A stretch of DNA of 13,667 nt from Erwinia sp. (lineage in GTDB: Bacteria > Pseudomonadota > Gammaproteobacteria > Enterobacterales > Enterobacteriaceae): NCBI GenBank assembly GCA_003512805.1, contig DOOK01000441.1:1-13667 (forward strand), written 5' to 3'. The position numbers and the translations under genes are program-made. This document shows positions 1 to 13,242 of this stretch, one piece after another; the first letter of the stretch is position 1; the number at the start of each line of letters is the position of its first letter. Below the pieces are notes generated by a model, which was not told the origin of the DNA, searched no databases, and was given only the letters and a program-made list of their open reading frames with translations.

Positions 1-899
1 CACATAACCCACGATATCGACAGGTTCCGCCGGGTTAAGCACCGGCAGCTGTTCGCTGGCTTCCGTTTCGCCCTCTATAACCGGCGCGGCGTACCATGGC
101 TGGATAGCGCTGTTCAGCAGGGCGCTGGAGAGCGAAGCCAGGCGATGTTCGTTAGCCAGATCCAGACCGGCGGAGTTTTGGCGATTCACGCCATACAGGT
201 CGCGCGGCAGGGGGATTTTCGGATGCGGCAGGCCAATCGCGCCTTCAGTACGGGCCAGTTTTTCAATTTCGTCGACCGGATCGGCAACCAGATCTTCAAT
301 CTGTAGCGTGTTATCGGCAATGCGGTTAACAAATGAGGTGTTAGCGCCGTTTTCCAGCAGGCGGCGCACCAGGTAAGCCAGCAGGGTTTCGTGTGTGCCG
401 ACGGGCGCATAGATGCGGCACGGACGGTTAAGCTTGCCATCGGCCACTTTGCCGACCACCTGCTCGTACAGCGGCTCACCCATGCCGTGCAGGCACTGAA
501 ACTCATACTGACCAGGGTAGTAGTTATTGCCCGCCATCTGATAAATAACCGCCAGCGTATGGGCGTTGTGCGTCGCGAACTGCGGATAGATCAGATTAGG
601 TACCGCTAACAGCTTACGGGCGCAGGCCAGGTAAGAGATATCGGTATAAACCTTGCGGGTAAATACCGGATAGCCTTCCAGACCGTCCATCTGAGCGCGT
701 TTGATTTCGCTGTCCCAGTAAGCACCTTTCACCAGACGGATCATCAGACGGCGACGGCTGCGCTGGGCCAGATCGATCAGCGCGTCGATCACAAACGGGC
801 AGCGCTTCTGATAGGCCTGAATAACAAAGCCGATCCCGTTCCAGCCTTCCAGCTCCGGTTCAAAGCAAAGTTTTTCCAGCAGATCCAGCGACAGCTCCA
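1..899 (-). CDS. putA: putA internal fragment: proline dehydrogenase / P5C dehydrogenase (bifunctional PutA), both ends missing
   Basis: The minus strand is open through all 300 codons here and translates to an internal piece of PutA, the membrane-associated flavoenzyme that oxidises proline to glutamate and represses its own gene. Recognisable stretches are [50 protein letters not shown] and [10 protein letters not shown]. The segment [20 protein letters not shown] carries the proline-binding residues known in E. coli as Tyr540, Arg555 and Arg556. Counting from Tyr540, the fragment covers roughly E. coli residues 377 to 676: the C-terminal half of the proline dehydrogenase barrel and the linker into the P5C dehydrogenase domain. 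The DNA-binding N-terminus, the catalytic Asp370 region and the aldehyde dehydrogenase domain are absent. The left end is the contig edge; the right end is an abrupt join to rpoB. Identity is certain; its position beside rpoB is probably artificial. Confidence 0.95.
876..899. other. Chimeric junction between rpoB and putA
   Basis: Coding to the right of this tract is RpoB ([19 protein letters not shown], then AANM); to the left it is PutA ([14 protein letters not shown]). The bases between encode ELSLDLL, a peptide that E. coli RpoB ([11 protein letters not shown]) and PutA ([11 protein letters not shown]) share by chance in the same frame. The crossover can lie anywhere in these 24 bases or fewer, a length typical of an assembler k-mer overlap. 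No insertion sequence, target duplication or recombination site is visible. An assembly error is the best explanation; a real deletion or translocation would destroy the essential rpoB gene. Confidence 0.85.
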
Positions 900-1842
900 T
901 GTTCGCCGCAACGATCAGTTCGCCGGTGCTTTCGTCGATATAATCTTTAGCGACGACTTTACCCGCGATATATTCAACCGGAACTTCAATATGCCCAACG
1001 GCATCTTTTTCCAGCTGACGAATATGGCGTGCTGTAATACGACGGCCTTTCTCAACGTAAACCGTTCCGTTGGCTTCGATATCGAAGGAGGCAGTCTCAC
1101 CGCGCAGGCGCTCAGGCACCAGTTCCATCTGCAGCTTGTTGTTGCGGATCTCATACACGATTTTGTCAAAGAACAGGTCAAGGATCTGCTCAGTGGTGTA
1201 GTTCAGCGCGCGCAGAATGATGGTCGCTGGCAGCTTGCGGCGACGGTCAATACGAACGAACAGGTTGTCTTTCGGGTCAAACTCAAAGTCTAACCAGGAA
1301 CCACGGTAAGGGATGATACGTGCGTTATACAGCACTTTACCCGACGAGTGGGTTTTACCCTTATCGCTGTCAAAGAAGACACCAGGACTACGATGCAGCT
1401 GAGAAACGATAACGCGTTCTGTACCGTTAATAACAAAGGTACCGTTATCGGTCATGAGCGGAATTTCGCCCATGTACACTTCCTGCTCTTTGATGTCTTT
1501 TACGGTACCTTCCGGCGCTTCACGCTCGTAGATCACCAGACGCAGTTTTACGCGCAAAGGAGCAGAATACGTGACGCCACGGATCTGACACTCTTTCACA
1601 TCAAAGACGGGTTCGCCTAAACGGTAGCTTACGTACTGCAGCTCAGAATTACCGCTATAGCTTTGGATAGGGAATACGGAACGGAATGCCGCTTCCAGAC
1701 CATATTGACCTTCCGGATCTTGCTCGATGAACTTCTGGAACGAGTCAAGCTGGATAGAAAGGAGATAAGGAATGTCCAGAACCTGCGGACGTTTTCCAAA
1801 ATCCTTACGAATGCGTTTTTTCTCGGTATAGGAGTAAACCAT
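876..1842 (-). CDS. rpoB: rpoB 5' fragment: RNA polymerase beta subunit, truncated after about 314 residues
   Basis: Starts at the ATG at 1842 with [19 protein letters not shown], the standard enteric beta-subunit N-terminus. Only the first 314 codons or so of a protein of about 1342 residues are present. This covers the start of the beta1 domain and much of the beta2 lobe, which help form the downstream DNA channel. Recognisable stretches are [40 protein letters not shown] and RQLEKD followed by [17 protein letters not shown]. The central rifampicin-binding clusters and the residues that line the active centre lie beyond the break. The gene follows rplL with the usual long spacer holding an attenuator. 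Its frame continues into putA without a stop, so an automatic caller could report a false rpoB-putA fusion protein. The gene is certain; I infer that the truncation comes from assembly. Confidence 0.96.
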
Positions 1843-1876
1843 AGGGTTCCTCAGCTCGCTGAAAAGTAGAACCTCT

Positions 1877-1897
1877 CTGTCCGTTCAGGGGGGACAG
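1877..1897 (-). promoter_or_regulatory. Small hairpin in the rpoB leader
   Basis: The complementary arms ctgtcc and ggacag (6 bp) enclose a 9-nt loop, about 35 nt before the rpoB start on the transcribed strand. No T-run follows, so it is not a terminator. It may be part of the folded rpoB leader, whose translation is autoregulated in E. coli, but the sequence alone does not show function. Confidence 0.35.
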
Positions 1898-2046
1898 TTC
1901 ATGCAACACTATTTTGTTGGCCGGAATGAACAGCTTCCGTAATACCTCTTTCTATCACTCTTAAATCATTTCGTTGCCGTGCAAGGCAGGGAACCCTGCG
2001 GGGAAGCAATATATTAAGGCGTCGATAGAAAAAGACATTAAGCAAA

Positions 2047-2077
2047 TCAGTGACTAAACGGTGTGAAACGCCACTGA
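2047..2077 (-). promoter_or_regulatory. Candidate RNase III processing stem in the rplL-rpoB spacer
   Basis: The rplL-rpoB spacer (1843-2161) is 319 nt and holds no gene. Just downstream of the attenuator on the transcribed strand, tcagtg and cactga form a 6-bp stem. In E. coli the same place holds the RNase III stem-loop that separates the L7/L12 message from the beta message. Position matches, but the stem seen here is short and I could not fold the full region. The rest of the spacer towards rpoB is AT-rich leader with no other clear element. Confidence 0.4.
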
Positions 2078-2090
2078 CGCTTTACAGCGC

Positions 2091-2121
2091 AAAAAGGCTG
2101 GTGACCAAAAAGTCACCAGCC
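2091..2121 (-). terminator. rplL-rpoB attenuator (partial terminator)
   Basis: On the minus strand a perfect 10-bp stem (arms ggctggtgac and gtcaccagcc) with a 6-nt loop is followed directly by five T residues. It lies about 40 nt after the rplL stop. The enteric rplL-rpoB attenuator sits here; it ends most transcripts after rplL so that ribosomal proteins are made in excess over the beta subunit. Confidence 0.9.
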
Positions 2122-2161
2122 ATCAGCCTGATTAACTCAGACTGCAACCTGAAAGGTTGGC

Positions 2162-2545
<384 letters not shown>

Positions 2546-2586
2546 TCAGAAATAGTTTATACGTTAAAGTGCAACAGGCAAAAAGC

Positions 2587-3084
2587 TTATGCAGCTTCTT
2601 TCGCGTCGCGTACGGCAGCCAGGGTGCGGACCAGTTTGCCTGCAGCGGCTTCTTTCATGGTCGACATCAGACGTGCCAGTGCTTCTTCGTAAGTTGGCAG
2701 AGTTGCCAGACGGTCGATATTCGCCGCCGTGATCAGCTCACCTTCAAAGGCCGCAGCTTTGACCTCAAATTTTGCATTCGCTTTCGCGAACTCTTTGAAC
2801 AGACGAGCAGCAGCGCCCGGGTGTTCCATAGAGTATGCAATCAGGGTCGGACCAACAAACGTGTCTTTCAGGATCTCAAACTGAGTTCCTTCAACGACGC
2901 GGCGCAGCAGGGTGTTACGAACAACACGCATGTAAACGCCAGCTTCACGACCTGCTTTACGCAGTTCAGTCATTTTGCCTACTGGTACGCCGCGAGAATC
3001 CGCAACTACCGCAGACAGCGCGCCTTTGGCTACTTCGGTGACTTCAGCAACAATCGCTTGTTTGTCTTGAAGATTTAATGCCAT
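2587..3084 (-). CDS. rplJ: 50S ribosomal protein L10
   Basis: Encodes 165 residues, the E. coli length, starting [21 protein letters not shown]10 forms the base of the stalk: its N-terminal domain binds 23S rRNA beside L11, and its C-terminal helix carries L7/L12 dimers. The stretch [18 protein letters not shown] in the rRNA-binding part and the alanine-rich C-terminal helix ([20 protein letters not shown]) are both visible. The ATG at 3084 has an aggag ribosome-binding site. A 292-nt spacer separates it from rplA and holds the L10-controlled leader. In E. coli the L10-L12 complex binds that leader and represses translation of both stalk genes. Confidence 0.98.
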
Positions 3085-3336
3085 TAGCTTTTGCTCCTGG
3101 ATTTTTACCGGAGAAGGATTCCTCCGGAACTCACATCACCTGCCAACCGAAGTCGGCAGGCGCTCATACACGGTGAGCAGAATCCAGCAAAGACTATAAA
3201 AATATTCTTCAGGTTCTGTCACCGTCTACGCAGGAAATTAAGTTTCTCGCGAAACACCTGCGGTCTTGGACGGAGGCCTGGATAAGGCCAGGCTCCAACC
3301 GAAAATTCTGGTTCTGTATATTAACAGAACAACGGG
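3085..3336 (-). promoter_or_regulatory. rplJ mRNA leader (L10 autoregulatory region)
   Basis: This long untranslated stretch precedes rplJ, where enterics carry the L10(L12) repressor-binding leader. A strong stem is visible at 3139-3160: on the RNA, ccugccgac and guuggcagg pair over 9 bp (one G-U) around a UUCG tetraloop. A second pairing potential lies near the start codon (ccggaggaa against ttctccgg at 3105-3127), which could hide or expose the upstream part of the leader. The role is assigned by position and family knowledge; the exact L10 contact site was not identified. Confidence 0.65.
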
Positions 3337-3342
3337 CCAAAG

Positions 3343-3371
3343 ATTCTAGTCGAAAATTTCGCCCGCGTAAA
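3343..3371 (-). promoter_or_regulatory. Candidate sigma-70 promoter for rplJ-rplL-rpoBC
   Basis: The minus strand reads TTTACG, a 17-nt spacer, then TAGAAT, starting just after the rplA stop. Hexamer match and spacing are good, and enterics have the major rplJ promoter in this spacer. Transcription would start near 3336 and give a leader of about 250 nt. A TAATAT box about 20 nt further downstream is an alternative -10 element with a poor -35 partner. Confidence 0.5.
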
Positions 3372-3376
3372 GCAGA

Positions 3377-4589
<1,213 letters not shown>

Positions 4590-4630
4590 AAAAACAAAAG
4601 GCGCGAAATTGTAGGGCAATTTCGCGCCTT
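4590..4630 (-). terminator. Intrinsic terminator after nusG
   Basis: On the minus strand a perfect 14-bp stem (arms aaggcgcgaaattg and caatttcgcgcctt, 5-nt loop) is followed by TTGTTTTTA. It lies about 45 nt past the nusG stop and would end the secE-nusG transcript before rplK. Confidence 0.88.
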
Positions 4631-4676
4631 CCGCAACCGTTATTCCGGTCTTTGGCTTACATTTTATGTAGGCCGA

Positions 4677-5222
4677 TCAGCCTTTCTCAACCTGTCCGAA
4701 GTCCAGCTCAACCGGCGTAGCGCGGCCAAAGATAGAAACGGAAACTTTCAGGCGGCTTTTCTCATAATCCACTTCTTCGACCACGCCGTTGAAATCAGCA
4801 AACGGACCGTCGTTGACGCGGACCATTTCGCCTGGTTCAAACAGGGTTTTCGGACGTGGCTTATCGCCAGCAGACTGCAGGCGGTTCATGATCGCGTCGA
4901 CTTCTTTATCGCTAATAGGTGCCGGACGATCGGATGTACCACCAATGAATCCCATGACGCGAGGCACGCTACGCACTAAGTGACAGCTTGCATCGTTCAT
5001 GACCATTTGTACCAGAACATAGCCCGGGAAGAACTTGCGTTCGCTTTTGCGACGCTGACCGCCACGGATTTCAACCACTTCTTCGGTTGGCACCATGACA
5101 TCGCCAAAAAGCTCTTCCATGTTATGTAATTTGATATGCTCGCGCAGCGACTGGGCTACACGGCCTTCAAAGCCGGAAAACGCCTGAACGACGTACCAGC
5201 GCTTTTTTGGAGCTTCAGACAT
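4677..5222 (-). CDS. nusG: Transcription elongation/termination factor NusG
   Basis: Encodes 181 residues, the E. coli length. NusG binds the clamp of RNA polymerase through its N-terminal NGN domain, suppresses backtracking, and through its C-terminal KOW domain contacts either Rho (termination) or S10 (transcription-translation coupling, rRNA antitermination). Visible features are the NGN start [20 protein letters not shown], the [10 protein letters not shown] core, and the KOW domain from about residue 127 ([20 protein letters not shown]). The C-terminus is QVEKG where E. coli, as I recall, has QVEKA. The ATG at 5222 lies 1 nt after the secE stop, the same tight spacing as in E. coli, which suggests coupled translation. 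A strong terminator follows. Confidence 0.98.
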
Positions 5223-5223
5223 C

Positions 5224-5607
5224 TCAGAACCTCAGGCCAGTGATAAACGATACCAGACGGACCAGAATACCATCCAGTCCCCACAAAATCAGTGACATCA
5301 CGGCAGTAACCGCGGCAACGATTAACGTGGTATGCAACGTTTCCTGACGAGTCGGCCAAATAACCTTGCGAACTTCTGTGCGCGCTTCGCGGGCAAAAGC
5401 CAGGGTTGCTTTGCCCTTTGTCGTCAGCAGCGCAATGCCACCTGCTGCTGCGATCAGGATTACAACGGCCAGCGCGCGCAGCGGGAGGGTGACATCACGA
5501 TAATAGTAGTTGCCGACCACGGCCACGAGCAGTAGCAGCGCCACGCCTAACCACTTTACCGTTTCCAGTCCACGCCCGCTCCCTTGAGCTTCGGTATTAG
5601 CACTCAT
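5224..5607 (-). CDS. secE: Preprotein translocase subunit SecE
   Basis: Encodes 127 residues from the ATG at 5607 ([15 protein letters not shown]), the start used in E. coli. An in-frame ATG five codons upstream (MAGWF) has no support from homologues. SecE clamps SecY in the inner-membrane SecYEG channel. Three hydrophobic segments fit the three-helix enteric form: about residues 19-36, 43-62 and 93-113. The conserved cytoplasmic amphipathic helix and hinge before the last segment ([20 protein letters not shown]) is the part essential for SecY binding. It is cotranscribed with nusG. In E. coli this operon directly follows tufB, which matters for judging the join to the str operon. Confidence 0.97.
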
Positions 5608-5695
5608 AAACCAACCTGCCACAATAGATCAGAAACTATTTTGCCCCGTAATACGCGGCAACCGAACCGAATAATGCGCTCAGGCGAAACTCGGC

Positions 5696-5725
5696 ATATA
5701 ACGCCGTGCTACAGAGCCTGCCTCA
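5696..5725 (-). promoter_or_regulatory. Candidate secE-nusG promoter
   Basis: The minus strand reads TGAGGC, an 18-nt spacer, then TTATAT, about 90 nt before secE. The surrounding sequence (gcaggctctgtag) resembles what I recall of the E. coli tufB-secE spacer, which has a TATAAT box at the same place. The -35 match is weak. Confidence 0.5.
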
Positions 5726-5779
5726 GCAATGATTATGGTTGAAAATCACTGATGAGCCAGGTTCTATGTTACAGCGTGC

Positions 5780-5804
5780 AAAAAGGGCATCAAATGATGC
5801 CCTC
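5780..5804 (-). terminator. Intrinsic terminator downstream of tuf (tufB-type flank)
   Basis: On the minus strand agggcatc pairs with gatgccct (8 bp, 4-nt loop), followed by a run of T residues. It lies about 35 nt past the tuf stop. The same hairpin follows tufB, not tufA, in E. coli as I recall it, so the flank left of tuf belongs to the tufB-secE locus. Confidence 0.88.
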
Positions 5805-5836
5805 TTCTTGTGCGTTGCGTCAAATATTATCAGCGA

Positions 5837-7081
<1,245 letters not shown>

Positions 7082-7091
7082 TTAAACCCGA

Positions 7092-9221
<2,130 letters not shown>

Positions 9222-9242
9222 CTAGGACGTTCAAAGTTAAAT

Positions 9243-9272
9243 CCCAGCGGGGTCAACTGAACGCCCGCTGGG
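9243..9272 (-). promoter_or_regulatory. Hairpin in the rpsG-fusA spacer
   Basis: Nine-base arms cccagcggg and cccgctggg enclose a 12-nt loop in the 87-nt gap. The fusA ribosome-binding site lies about 25 nt further on. No T-run follows. It may be a processing or stability element between the S7 and EF-G reading frames; function is not shown by sequence. Confidence 0.5.
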
Positions 9273-9293
9273 TTAATAACAACTACTGAGCTG

Positions 9294-10302
<1,009 letters not shown>

Positions 10303-10309
10303 ACGCGGA

Positions 10310-10338
10310 ATTTTAGGGCTGAGCAGAAAAGGTGTCAA
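10310..10338 (-). promoter_or_regulatory. str operon promoter
   Basis: The minus strand reads TTGACA, a 17-nt spacer, then TAAAAT, about 75 nt before rpsL. The -35 is a perfect consensus and the arrangement matches the known E. coli str promoter. The discriminator after the -10 box (tccgcgtcc) is GC-rich, as in stringently controlled promoters, so ppGpp/DksA repression is likely (inference). The promoter begins about 20 nt after the tusB stop. Confidence 0.9.
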
Positions 10339-10359
10339 GAAATAACCAGGATATCGTAC

Positions 10360-10647
10360 TCACCAGGTCATTTGTTGAGTCTGTTTTACCGTCAACGCGA
10401 CGAACTCAGTATAGCTTACTGCGGCCACGCTGGATGAAATTTGAGCGGAAAGTCCGCGAGCGATAACATCGTCCTGCAGCGCATAGAGAGAAATGGGGGC
10501 CAGAAGCAGCAATTCAAGGGCCTGGCTGCCTTCCAGCGCTGCCAGTACGCCGTCCTGCATTAGCAGTACGTCGTCCCCATTTGCCAGCATTCGCAGCAGG
10601 GCGTTGAAATCGCAGCGGAAAGGCGAGTTGATCACCGTATGCAGCAT
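10360..10647 (-). CDS. tusB: Sulfurtransferase complex subunit TusB
   Basis: Encodes 95 residues, the E. coli length, beginning MLHTVINSPFRCDFNALLRM and ending QMTW. TusB is part of the TusBCD heterohexamer. The complex accepts persulfide sulfur from TusA and passes it to TusE and MnmA for 2-thiolation of the wobble uridine of tRNA-Lys, tRNA-Glu and tRNA-Gln. TusB contributes to the structure and is not the main sulfur carrier. The start at 10647 lies 7 nt after the tusC stop, and its ribosome-binding site (tgagga) overlaps that stop. Its sequence is less conserved than those of neighbouring ribosomal genes, as expected. Location next to rpsL is the standard enteric arrangement. Confidence 0.95.
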   Translation of the reverse strand: MLHTVINSPFRCDFNALLRMLANGDDVLLMQDGVLAALEGSQALELLLLAPISLYALQDDVIARGLSAQISSSVAAVSYTEFVALTVKQTQQMTW

Positions 10648-10654
10648 ACTTTCC

Positions 10655-11014
10655 TCAGAAAGAAATAATTTGATCGTATTTTTCCAGCTCTGCGCGCAGC
10701 GCGGGAGGCGCCAGTACCGTGACCGGCAGAGCTTTCAACGCGGCAGCATCAAGACCCCGCTCGGCCAGCGAGGCCGAACAGGCGTAGAAATTTTCCACAT
10801 CATACAGCGGCAGTACGCCAAAAGTGGCGATATAGTTGCGCGCCAGCACCTTTTCCGGCTGCTGGTCGCCCAGCAGTTGCGTTACGCCGTCGCTGATAAA
10901 AAACAGCGCCACGTCTTCGCTAAGCGCTGAAACGGCCATCACGGCATCCAGCCCTTCCCTGCCGGCGCTGGAACCATGAGGTGCCTGACTGAAGACAAAG
11001 GCGATTCGCTTCAT
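10655..11014 (-). CDS. tusC: Sulfurtransferase complex subunit TusC
   Basis: Encodes 119 residues from the ATG at 11014 ([20 protein letters not shown]), the length of E. coli TusC. An in-frame TTG one codon earlier is a less likely start. TusC belongs to the DsrE/DsrF family and is the second subunit of TusBCD in the cytosolic tRNA 2-thiouridine relay. The [14 protein letters not shown] stretch and the C-terminus [10 protein letters not shown] fit the family. The start codon overlaps the tusD stop by 1 nt (TGATG), a sign of translational coupling that would keep the three subunits in equal amounts. Confidence 0.95.
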
Positions 11015-11400
11015 CAAAATTGCACCATCCGTTCGCTGCTTAACGCGGCTTCTGCCAGCGCACCCAAGCCAGAAAGCTGAAAGCCTTCAGCCAGATTGGC
11101 CGCCGGCAACGCCTGATTTTTTGCTTCCTGCGGATCCACGATACCGCGACGCAGCGCGGCGGCCACGCAAATATTTAGCGCAACGCCACGATCGCGATGT
11201 AATTGTTGCCATGCCTGAGTCAGATTGAACTCATCGCTGGCTGGCGAAGTCAGCGCGCTGGCGTTAAGCACCCCTTCACGGTAAAAGAAGACGCTTTCCA
11301 ACTTGTGTCCTTCGGCCAGCAGCGCCTGAGCAAACAGCCAGGCGGAACTGGCCTGCTGTGTCCCATAAGCCGGGCCGGTTACTAACAGCGTGTAACGCAT
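11014..11400 (-). CDS. tusD: Sulfurtransferase complex subunit TusD
   Basis: Encodes 128 residues, the E. coli length. TusD is the sulfur-accepting subunit of TusBCD: its Cys78 takes the persulfide from TusA. That cysteine is retained at residue 78 within [15 protein letters not shown]. The DsrE-fold start [20 protein letters not shown] and the FFYREGV segment match the family. The ATG at 11400 overlaps the yheO stop by 1 nt (TAATG), so yheO, tusD and tusC form a tightly packed unit. Confidence 0.96.
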
Positions 11401-12122
11401 TAACGCTCGCTTCCCTGGAAGTCGCCGTTTTTAAACTGGCGAATATAGAGATAAACGGTGTGTCTGGAGATATTCAGGCGTTCGGCCACCTGACTGATAG
11501 CATCTTTAATATCGAAGATGCCTTTTTCGTAGAGGTTCAGCACAATCTGACGATTCTTGGCATTGTTGGAGATGTTGCGGTCATTGCTGACCTCCTCAAT
11601 CGTAAACTCCAGCGTTTGCATCACCAAATCCTCCACCGAAGAGGCGAAGTTGACGGAAGAATCCATCTCGTGCGTTTCCGGCGGCATAAAGGTCGCCATA
11701 ATCTGCGAGAAAGGCACATCCAGATTCATATTGATGCACAGCAGTCCGATGACACGCTGTTTGCCATTACGAATAGCAATAGTGACCGATTTCATCAGCA
11801 CGCCGCTTTTGGCACGGGTGAAATAGGCTCTGGAGACATTGCTTTCCGCATCTGTCATATCATGCAGCATCCGCAGCGCCAGATCGGTTATAGGTGAACC
11901 GATTTTGCGGCCGGTGTGCTCACCGTTAGCGATCCTGACCGCCGAGCGTTTCAGGTCTTCCAGCGAATGCAGGACAATCTCGCAGTGCGAGCCGATAAGC
12001 ATTGCCAGCCCGTCTACCACGGCCTCGTAAGATTTAAGAATATCAAAATCGGTTTGTTCGAAGGGATGCTGCTCCAGTAATTCCAGATCGTTCACATCAC
12101 CGGTAAAAATTGAGCCAGACAT
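11400..12122 (-). CDS. yheO: YheO-family PAS/helix-turn-helix transcriptional regulator
   Basis: Encodes 240 residues. The N-terminal YheO-like PAS domain (about residues 25-140) contains [20 protein letters not shown] and [17 protein letters not shown]. The C-terminal winged/HTH domain (about 180-235) contains [20 protein letters not shown] and [21 protein letters not shown] relative, DauR of Pseudomonas, controls D-arginine use, but the ligand and targets of enteric YheO are not settled; I assign no specific function. It precedes tusDCB and overlaps tusD by 1 nt, so the regulator and the tRNA thiolation genes are probably cotranscribed. The ATG at 12122 follows an agggtgg ribosome-binding site. 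Confidence 0.93.
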
Positions 12123-12178
12123 TAAGACACCACCCTTAAAAGAGTCCGCGGTACGCGGCCCGCGCAGCGAAGAGCGTC

Positions 12179-12208
12179 AGTCTAGCAAATATCGGAAATG
12201 TCTGTCCC
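12179..12208 (-). promoter_or_regulatory. Candidate promoter for yheO-tusDCB
   Basis: The minus strand reads GGGACA, 18 nt, then TAGACT, with TGC directly before the -10 box (extended -10 form). It lies about 57 nt before yheO and after the fkpA terminator. Each hexamer matches consensus at 4 of 6 bases. A short ccgcg/cgcgg stem at 12146-12158 lies in the resulting leader. Confidence 0.35.
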
Positions 12209-12253
12209 GACCTTTGTCATGTATTTCTTGTGGGCATTGCACTGGGGAGGGGA

Positions 12254-12283
12254 ATAAAAAGAGGCCGCCACGAACGTGGCGGC
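12254..12283 (-). terminator. Intrinsic terminator after fkpA
   Basis: On the minus strand an 8-bp GC-rich stem (gccgccac and gtggcggc, 4-nt loop) is followed by CTCTTTTTATT. It starts about 7 nt past the fkpA stop and separates fkpA from yheO. Confidence 0.88.
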
Positions 12284-12290
12284 AGGCATC

Positions 12291-13130
12291 TTATTTGGTC
12301 TGAGCGGCGGCCGGTGTATCGGTCGGTGCCGGTGCGTTAGCATCCGCCTTCGCGGCCGGTTTGATGTCCAGCAGTTCGACATCGAAGACCAGCGTAGAAT
12401 TAGCCGGAATACCCGGCACGCCATTTTTGCCGTAGGCAAGCTGTGGTGGGATGACCAGCTTGATTTTACCGCCTTTTTTCACGTGCTTCAGGCCTTCGGT
12501 CCAGCCAGGGATCACGCCGTCAAGACGGAAAGAGAGCGGTTCACCGCGCGTATAGGAGTTGTCGAATTCTGAACCGTCGATCAGCGTCCCTTTGTAGTTC
12601 ACCACTACAGTATCGCTGTCTTTCGGTGCGTCACCGGTCCCTTCTTTCTCTACCTGATACAGCAGGCCAGATTCCGTTTTCTTCACGCCTTTTTCTTTCG
12701 CAAATTTGGTAGCGAAAGCGTTACCTTTCTCGGTATTTTCCTTCGCGTCTTTTTCCATTTTCGCCTGAGCGGCAGTTTTCACGCGGCCTTCAAATGCCTG
12801 CAGCGTCTGCTCAATCTCCTGATCGGAGAGCTTGCTCTTACCTGCGAAAGCATCCTGAACGCCTGAGATCAGCTGCTGCTTATCCAGCGCGATACCCAGT
12901 TTTTCCTGCTCTTTCAGTGAATTTTCCATGTAGCGGCCAAGTGACGCGCCCAGCGCGTAAGCAGACTGCTGATCTTCATTTGTAAATGCGGCATTCTTCG
13001 GTGCCTGCTGTGGCGCCTGTGCGGCTGGCGCTGCTGGTGCCGCAGCGGTTTCGGCAGCGGATGCCAGCGGTGCATTCAGCGCAACGCCCAGGGTGGTGGC
13101 TAACAGTGTGACTTTAAACAGTGATTTCAT
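12291..13130 (-). CDS. fkpA: Periplasmic peptidyl-prolyl isomerase/chaperone FkpA
   Basis: Encodes 279 residues from the ATG at 13130 (MKSLFKVTLLATTLGVALNA), which has a ggag site 6 nt upstream; an ATG four codons earlier (MEKW) is less likely. A signal peptide with probable cleavage after Ala-Ser-Ala at residue 25 sends it to the periplasm. After an Ala/Pro-rich linker, the helical dimerisation/chaperone domain includes SAYALGASLGRYMENSLKEQ and LSDQEIEQTLQAFEGRV. The C-terminal FKBP domain has VVVNYKGTLIDGSEFDNSY, GVIPGWTEGL and AYG, with the aromatic pocket residues present. FkpA folds envelope proteins and, in E. coli, is induced by sigma-E. The Ala/Pro-rich linker and tail differ from and are slightly longer than in E. 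coli (270 residues). It diverges from slyX. Confidence 0.97.
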   Translation of the reverse strand: MKSLFKVTLLATTLGVALNAPLASAAETAAAPAAPAAQAPQQAPKNAAFTNEDQQSAYALGASLGRYMENSLKEQEKLGIALDKQQLISGVQDAFAGKSKLSDQEIEQTLQAFEGRVKTAAQAKMEKDAKENTEKGNAFATKFAKEKGVKKTESGLLYQVEKEGTGDAPKDSDTVVVNYKGTLIDGSEFDNSYTRGEPLSFRLDGVIPGWTEGLKHVKKGGKIKLVIPPQLAYGKNGVPGIPANSTLVFDVELLDIKPAAKADANAPAPTDTPAAAQTK

Positions 13131-13242
13131 CCATTTCTCCAAAACCGAAGCCTCTCACCTCGGAAATCGTTTTACAGACAGAGCCTGTACTATACAGCCG
13201 TGCGCGAGAAAACTTTATGCTCTCGCCATGATAACTAACTAC

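What the first reader, a model, noticed from the sequence alone, without database searches (positions are those of the whole stretch)
876..899. In-frame rpoB::putA hybrid at a short shared tract
Seen: codons to the right are RpoB, codons to the left are PutA, and the frame stays open across the join through at least 300 putA codons. The tract between encodes ELSLDLL, found in both proteins (Rpo[12 protein letters not shown], Put[12 protein letters not shown]), so at most 24 bases could be common to both genes. Known: rpoB is essential and single copy, and putA lies elsewhere in enterics. Inferred: an assembler joined two loci at a k-mer-sized match. Because the frame is kept, an annotation pipeline would report an apparently novel polymerase-proline dehydrogenase fusion protein.
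Basis: partly seen in the sequence, partly recalled or inferred. Interest (0 to 1): 0.8.

Follow-up and report, generated by a model that had tools for sequence, protein, structure and literature searches.

The report
Assembly-made rpoB-putA hybrid contig
A contig that seems to fuse an RNA polymerase gene to a proline-breakdown gene is most likely an assembly error at a 24-base stretch that both ordinary genes happen to share, so the "fusion protein" is probably not real.

Summary
On the minus strand, window 1842-900 is the 5' part of rpoB, and window 875-1 is a middle part of putA in the same open frame (614 codons to the window edge). The shared tract is exactly window 876-899.

In the closest named relative found, Erwinia sp. 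198, both genes are full-length, lie on different contigs, and carry this exact 24-mer with unrelated flanks. The 24-mer sits in both genes in 5 of 37 Erwinia genomes. Of the same 37, 35 show both pieces and none shows them joined. In the 16 genomes with both on one contig they lie at least 1.3 Mb apart along it.

The contig has a second non-native join that this finding does not mention: it enters tuf from the tufA side (fusA) and leaves on the tufB side (secE). No place listed for the 37 Erwinia genomes shows this, though 5 E. coli records do.

All pieces fit one Erwinia species near sp. 198, so this looks like a genome misjoined at repeats. Reads were not available, so the artefact is inferred. 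A real rearrangement at the native rpoB locus is very unlikely.

The parts
1..1842 (-). apparent rpoB::putA hybrid ORF (614 codons, runs off the window start)
900..1842 (-). rpoB 5' part (RpoB residues 1-314 and, with the tract, to about 322), downstream of rplL as in relatives
   Evidence: 96.8% identical to Erwinia sp. 198 rpoB over 943 bases
876..899 (-). 24-base tract shared exactly by rpoB and putA; the join lies somewhere inside it
1..875 (-). putA middle part: proline dehydrogenase domain without its first third, and the first residues of the aldehyde dehydrogenase part
   Evidence: 90.1% identical to Erwinia sp. 198 putA over 873 bases
5837..7020 (-). tuf, inside or at the end of which the contig passes from the tufA locus (fusA side) to the tufB locus (secE side): second non-native join
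2162..5622 (-). secE-nusG-rplK-rplA-rplJ-rplL, the neighbourhood of rpoB in relatives (gene names partly by recall from the translations)
7092..13142 (-). fusA, rpsG, rpsL, three DsrE/DsrH-family genes (tusBCD-like), a yheO-like gene, an FKBP-type isomerase (fkpA-like): the str region, tufA side

Best explanation
The hybrid is a mis-assembly. The contig comes from an Erwinia species close to Erwinia sp. 198, whose rpoB and putA genes, far apart on the chromosome, both carry the same 24-base tract. In a short-read de Bruijn assembly with a small word length (24 or less), the two genes share graph nodes there. Where the true continuations were thinly covered or clipped as tips, the path ran from rpoB into putA. 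Both genes read the tract (ELSLDLL) in the same codon phase, so the frame stayed open. The same contig was also carried through the tufA/tufB repeat, joining the str region to the secE region. Shown: the 24-mer in both parent genes of relatives, their separation there, and the two non-native joins in the window. Inferred: that the window's species has intact parent genes, and that the switch happened in an assembler.
For: Erwinia sp. 198 rpoB and putA both carry the exact 24-mer, and each follows the window only on its own side; both are full-length open frames there. The shared run is exactly 24 in 5 of 5 genomes that have it in both genes, with 60-base flanks 23-40% alike. 23 of 37 Erwinia genomes carry the 24-mer, at 28 places, none for the reversed control; compared by hand, all 28 are the rpoB site (17) or the putA site (11). 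All 72 places listed lie on one side or the other. 0 of 5426 E. coli genomes have one place covering 80% of window 1-2400. There is a second non-native join at tuf. Segment identities fit one species. In a toy k=21 graph model with 100-base reads at 2x, the rpoB-to-putA path became the only one in 599 of 20,000 trials; the two genes share no word of 25 bases or more in the 524 bases compared.
Against: No reads and no sister contigs were available, and the assembler is unknown. In the toy model the commonest outcome from 2x upward is a contig break, not a chimera (11,785 of 20,000 at 2x, 19,957 of 20,000 at 8x; k=21, 100-base reads). The chimera is rare at higher depth: 1 of 20,000 at 8x for k=21 with 100- and with 150-base reads. 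A 13.7 kb contig suggests that depth was not very low everywhere.
Confidence: 0.88

Rival explanations
1. Physical chimera made in the laboratory: template switching in PCR or whole-genome amplification, or chimeric library molecules, at the 24-base match. The reads would then span the join, but the organism's DNA would not.
For: The same shared tract would serve as the microhomology.
Against: A chimeric molecule would have to win over the true continuations. The second join, at the 1.2 kb tuf repeat, is more typical of assembly (inference).
Confidence: 0.07
2. Real chromosomal rearrangement by recombination at the 24-base tract, with rpoB truncated at about residue 322 and continued as PutA.
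For: The frame is open and the codon phase matches. The tuf layout of the same contig does exist in 5 E. coli records, so that join at least could be natural.
Against: rpoB is essential (established knowledge), and the hybrid sits where rpoB lies in relatives and cuts it off. In the 16 Erwinia genomes with both genes on one contig they are at least 1.3 Mb apart along it, 11 in opposite orientation, where an exchange would be an inversion breaking rpoB; in the other 5 it would be a deletion or duplication. The PutA part lacks Pfam Pro_dh positions 1-91 of 278. No such protein among the best 120 of 7996 matches (338-1074 residues only).
Confidence: 0.04
3. Variant of the best explanation: the pieces come from two different Erwinia strains or species in one sample, joined at the tract, rather than from one genome misjoined with itself. 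Its odds overlap with those of the best explanation.
For: Related strains can co-occur. rpoB is 96.8% and putA 90.1% identical to Erwinia sp. 198.
Against: The identities track gene type: yheO-like 90.8%, fkpA-like 90.3%, putA 90.1%, tusBCD-like 86.5%; rpoB, ribosomal and translation genes 96.5-99.6%. Erwinia sp. 198 is the nearest of the genomes compared for putA and for each other segment except rplJ (G018 nearer) and tuf (only 80 bases held) (three of the seven genomes had no str region fetched).
Confidence: 0.15

Closest known systems
Chimeric contigs from de Bruijn metagenome assembly
   Same: Join at an exact word shared by two loci, the true continuations lost. The review PMC7299287 (passages seen) says that graphs linked by shared k-mers can give chimeric contigs and that iterative assemblers start with a small k.
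   Different: The review speaks of chimeras between related species; here the loci appear to belong to one species, and the join happens to be in frame.
tufA-tufB inversion in enterobacteria
   Same: fusA-tuf-secE order, present in 5 E. coli records (UTI89 four times, UM146 once). PMC8262849 (passages seen) cites earlier work in which up to a quarter of recombination events between the inverted tuf genes gave an inversion.
   Different: In this window it could equally be collapse of the two tuf copies by the assembler; no place listed for 37 Erwinia genomes shows it.
P0006, a phosphopentomutase-PutA hybrid on a 2123-base contig
   Same: Another protein that enters PutA at almost the same residue (NF008772 position 373, against 374 for the window).
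   Different: Other partner, other record; not checked at DNA level.

Membership tests
Assembly chimera at a shared word | both parent loci exist apart in relatives | tested here: met
   35 of 37 Erwinia genomes have both pieces, 2 (G033, G034) only the putA piece; none contiguous
Assembly chimera at a shared word | exact shared word already in both parents at the join | tested here: met
   24-mer in rpoB and putA of Erwinia sp. 198 and four other genomes, 5 of 37
Assembly chimera at a shared word | reads fail to span the join | not testable with these tools
   no reads, and no genome held for the window
Functional RpoB | full-length beta subunit | tested here: not met
   only about the first 322 of 1342 residues; 315.6 bits against the NCBIfam rpoB cut-off of 801
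Functional PutA | complete proline dehydrogenase domain | tested here: not met
   Pro_dh profile entered at position 92 of 278; 636 bits against a cut-off of 1750, though the window edge also cuts the 3' end
tufA-tufB inversion | fusA-tuf-secE order | tested here: met
tufA-tufB inversion | reciprocal join in the same genome | not testable with these tools
   the rest of the assembly is not held

The most novel reading that the evidence does not exclude
A real, possibly transient or merodiploid Erwinia chromosome in which a rearrangement at a 24-base match made an RpoB(1-322)::PutA hybrid expressed from the rplL-rpoB promoters, with intact rpoB kept elsewhere by duplication.
Probability: 0.03. 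Interest if true: 0.55.

Novelty: not a real feature. Interest (0 to 1): 0.06.

Why it matters
Mainly as a caution. In-frame hybrids at short shared coding tracts pass gene callers and can enter databases as new fusion proteins. Looking for the exact join word in both parent genes of a relative gives strong evidence about them without reads.

Tried and rejected
Fusion among known proteins: of the best 120 of 7996 matches, all carry Pfam PF01619 and 118 cover 52-60% of the queried stretch, which fits the PutA side alone (most alignments not viewed). P0047 at 85% cover was checked: it is PutA, and its alignment before the tract is weak. P0006 at 67% is a different hybrid. The search admits proteins of 338-1074 residues, so a full-length hybrid of about 1260 would be missed, and the window's own protein was not in the list, so the search has no positive control.

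Junction and 24-mer: no exact match in viral contigs. Plasmids: 28 records match window 1-2400, 0 with a place covering 80% (15 listed). Phages: 14 records match, 10 listed, none of those bridging.

Papers: for an rpoB-putA fusion (terms rpoB, putA, fusion protein, chimeric) 44 papers hold all terms, 8 were seen as a listing, none on the subject; 'puta' also matches 'putative'. Searches gave listings; passages of three papers were read. PMC8046335 gave nothing that decides the tuf join.

Tuf switch point: could not be placed. The window follows G018 tufA at 35 of 41 sites where the copies differ, tufB at 5, neither at 1, to near the 3' end; gene conversion could explain this.

Background repeats: (84 isolated matches, tandem repeats included) was replaced, which left out pairs within one 20-kb piece and matches of 60 bases or more. 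One search printed 19 rows, 8 of 24 bases or more. I dropped 7 rows (33-47 bases, between L169, L219 and L222, judged by recall to be linked to rRNA operons) and one double row; 11 remain.

A translation of L146/L147 printed was in the wrong frame and was not used; redid the frames. In one search the putA frame of G029 is shorter (1174 codons) than in the other four (1316-1330); not followed up.

Full report
What is there. The minus-strand ORF from 1842 to the window start is open for 614 codons. Against solved structures, residues 1-326 align to E. coli RpoB chains 1-326 and residues 314-610 to PutA chains (376-672 of 4o8a_A). Pfam and NCBIfam agree. The RpoB part stands downstream of rplL and the other secE-rplL genes, as in relatives.

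The source. No genome is held for the window. At DNA level the window against that genome (G001) is 96.8% in rpoB, 90.1% in putA, 98.2% in fusA, 90.8% in the yheO-like gene, 90.3% in the fkpA-like gene and 86.5% in the tusBCD-like genes. The putA value is what other genes outside translation show, so all pieces are compatible with one Erwinia species related to sp. 198 but probably not the same.

The join. Reading in the coding direction, the window follows Erwinia sp. 198 rpoB through the tract to 876 and departs right after it; it follows putA from 899 onward and not before. The 24 bases 899-876 occur letter for letter in both genes of that genome, each of which is a full-length open frame (rpoB 1362 codons from the first possible start, putA 1316). 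Over the 37 Erwinia genomes held, 23 carry the 24-mer, at 28 places; the reversed control has none. Compared by hand with the coordinates, the 28 are the homologous site in rpoB (17) or putA (11). Five genomes (G001, G011, G018, G021, G029) have it in both, and there the shared run is 24 bases each time, with unrelated flanks. The tract is thus a coincidence of two leucine-rich coding stretches read in the same codon phase, present without any join.

Is the join found elsewhere? In one search all 37 genomes matched, 35 with two places and 2 (G033, G034) with a putA place only; none of the 72 listed places bridges the tract. Of 5426 E. coli genomes, 5375 match window 1-2400 and none has a place covering 80% of it (10 of 5385 records viewed). 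The protein search showed no fusion of this kind in its best 120 of 7996 matches, with the limits told in Tried and rejected.

A second join. In the coding direction the contig runs fkpA-like, yheO-like, tusBCD-like, rpsL, rpsG, fusA, tuf, then secE, nusG, rplK, rplA, rplJ, rplL, rpoB. In relatives, the tuf after fusA (tufA) and the tuf before secE (tufB) are two loci. Four tRNA genes precede tufB in the three genomes looked at (G001, G018, G021), and the window has no tRNA gene. Its fusA-tuf spacer matches only the tufA locus and its tuf-secE spacer only the tufB locus in 3 of 3 genomes tested. No place listed covers both sides. That list is cut at its weak end. By my tally, 21 of the 37 genomes show both native layouts read through the whole of tuf; in the others tuf is mostly broken between contigs, so they say little. 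In Erwinia sp. 198 itself the assembly breaks inside tuf, about 80 bases from each end. In E. coli, 5 records have the window's order, and PMC8262849 (passages) cites inversions between tuf genes, so this join alone could be real. Together with the first it points to an assembler walking through repeats.

Mechanism. In the regions compared, the two Erwinia sp. 198 genes share four words of 21 bases, two of 23 and none of 25 or more, all on the same strand. In a toy model of error-free reads with tip removal, the rpoB-to-putA path became the only one in 599 of 20,000 trials at 2x, 116 at 4x and 1 at 8x (k=21, 100-base reads); with 150-base reads it was 237, 25 and 1. At 2x and above the commonest outcome is a contig break. 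A crude count of isolated 21-24 base matches gives 11 in 1.2 Mb of one Erwinia genome, about 156 per genome (rows dropped as told). So a low-depth genome could be expected to yield occasional such joins. That some assemblers start from a small word and that shared words lead to chimeric contigs is said in PMC7299287 (passages).

Why not real. That rpoB is essential is established knowledge. The hybrid lies where rpoB lies in relatives and would remove the rest of it. In the 16 Erwinia genomes with both genes on one contig they are at least 1.3 Mb apart along it, 11 in opposite and 5 in the same orientation (coordinates, tallied). An exchange between opposite copies would break rpoB.

Verdict. 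Observation confirmed, interpretation supported, biological interest low. What remains open is mainly which kind of artefact this is.

Noticed in passing
window 5837-7020: Second non-native join: the contig enters tuf from fusA (tufA locus) and leaves to secE (tufB locus). Collapse of repeats or a tuf inversion.
   Followed up: yes
H36-H40 (E. coli UTI89 and UM146 records): These 5 records are the only ones in the E. coli collection with a single place covering at least 80% of window 4600-9800 (secE side to fusA/rpsG), which looks like a natural tufA-tufB inversion in that lineage.
   Followed up: partly
P0006 (395 aa, 2123-base contig, source ena): A phosphopentomutase start joined to PutA at almost the same PutA residue as in the window: probably another chimeric contig.
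   Followed up: partly
window 2095-2157, minus strand: Rfam P26 (RF00630, described as a Pseudomonas sRNA) matches the rplL-rpoB spacer at 67.1 bits, above its cut-off of 36.
   Followed up: no
G018 tufA and tufB (L144, L143): The two tuf copies of this Erwinia differ at 41 of 1184 sites, many of them at coding positions 386-545, 891-926 and 1070-1103, so they are not fully homogenised.
   Followed up: no
L155 (G029 putA): The open frame through the tract is 1174 codons, shorter at its start than in four other genomes (1316-1330); a frameshift or sequence error is possible.
   Followed up: no
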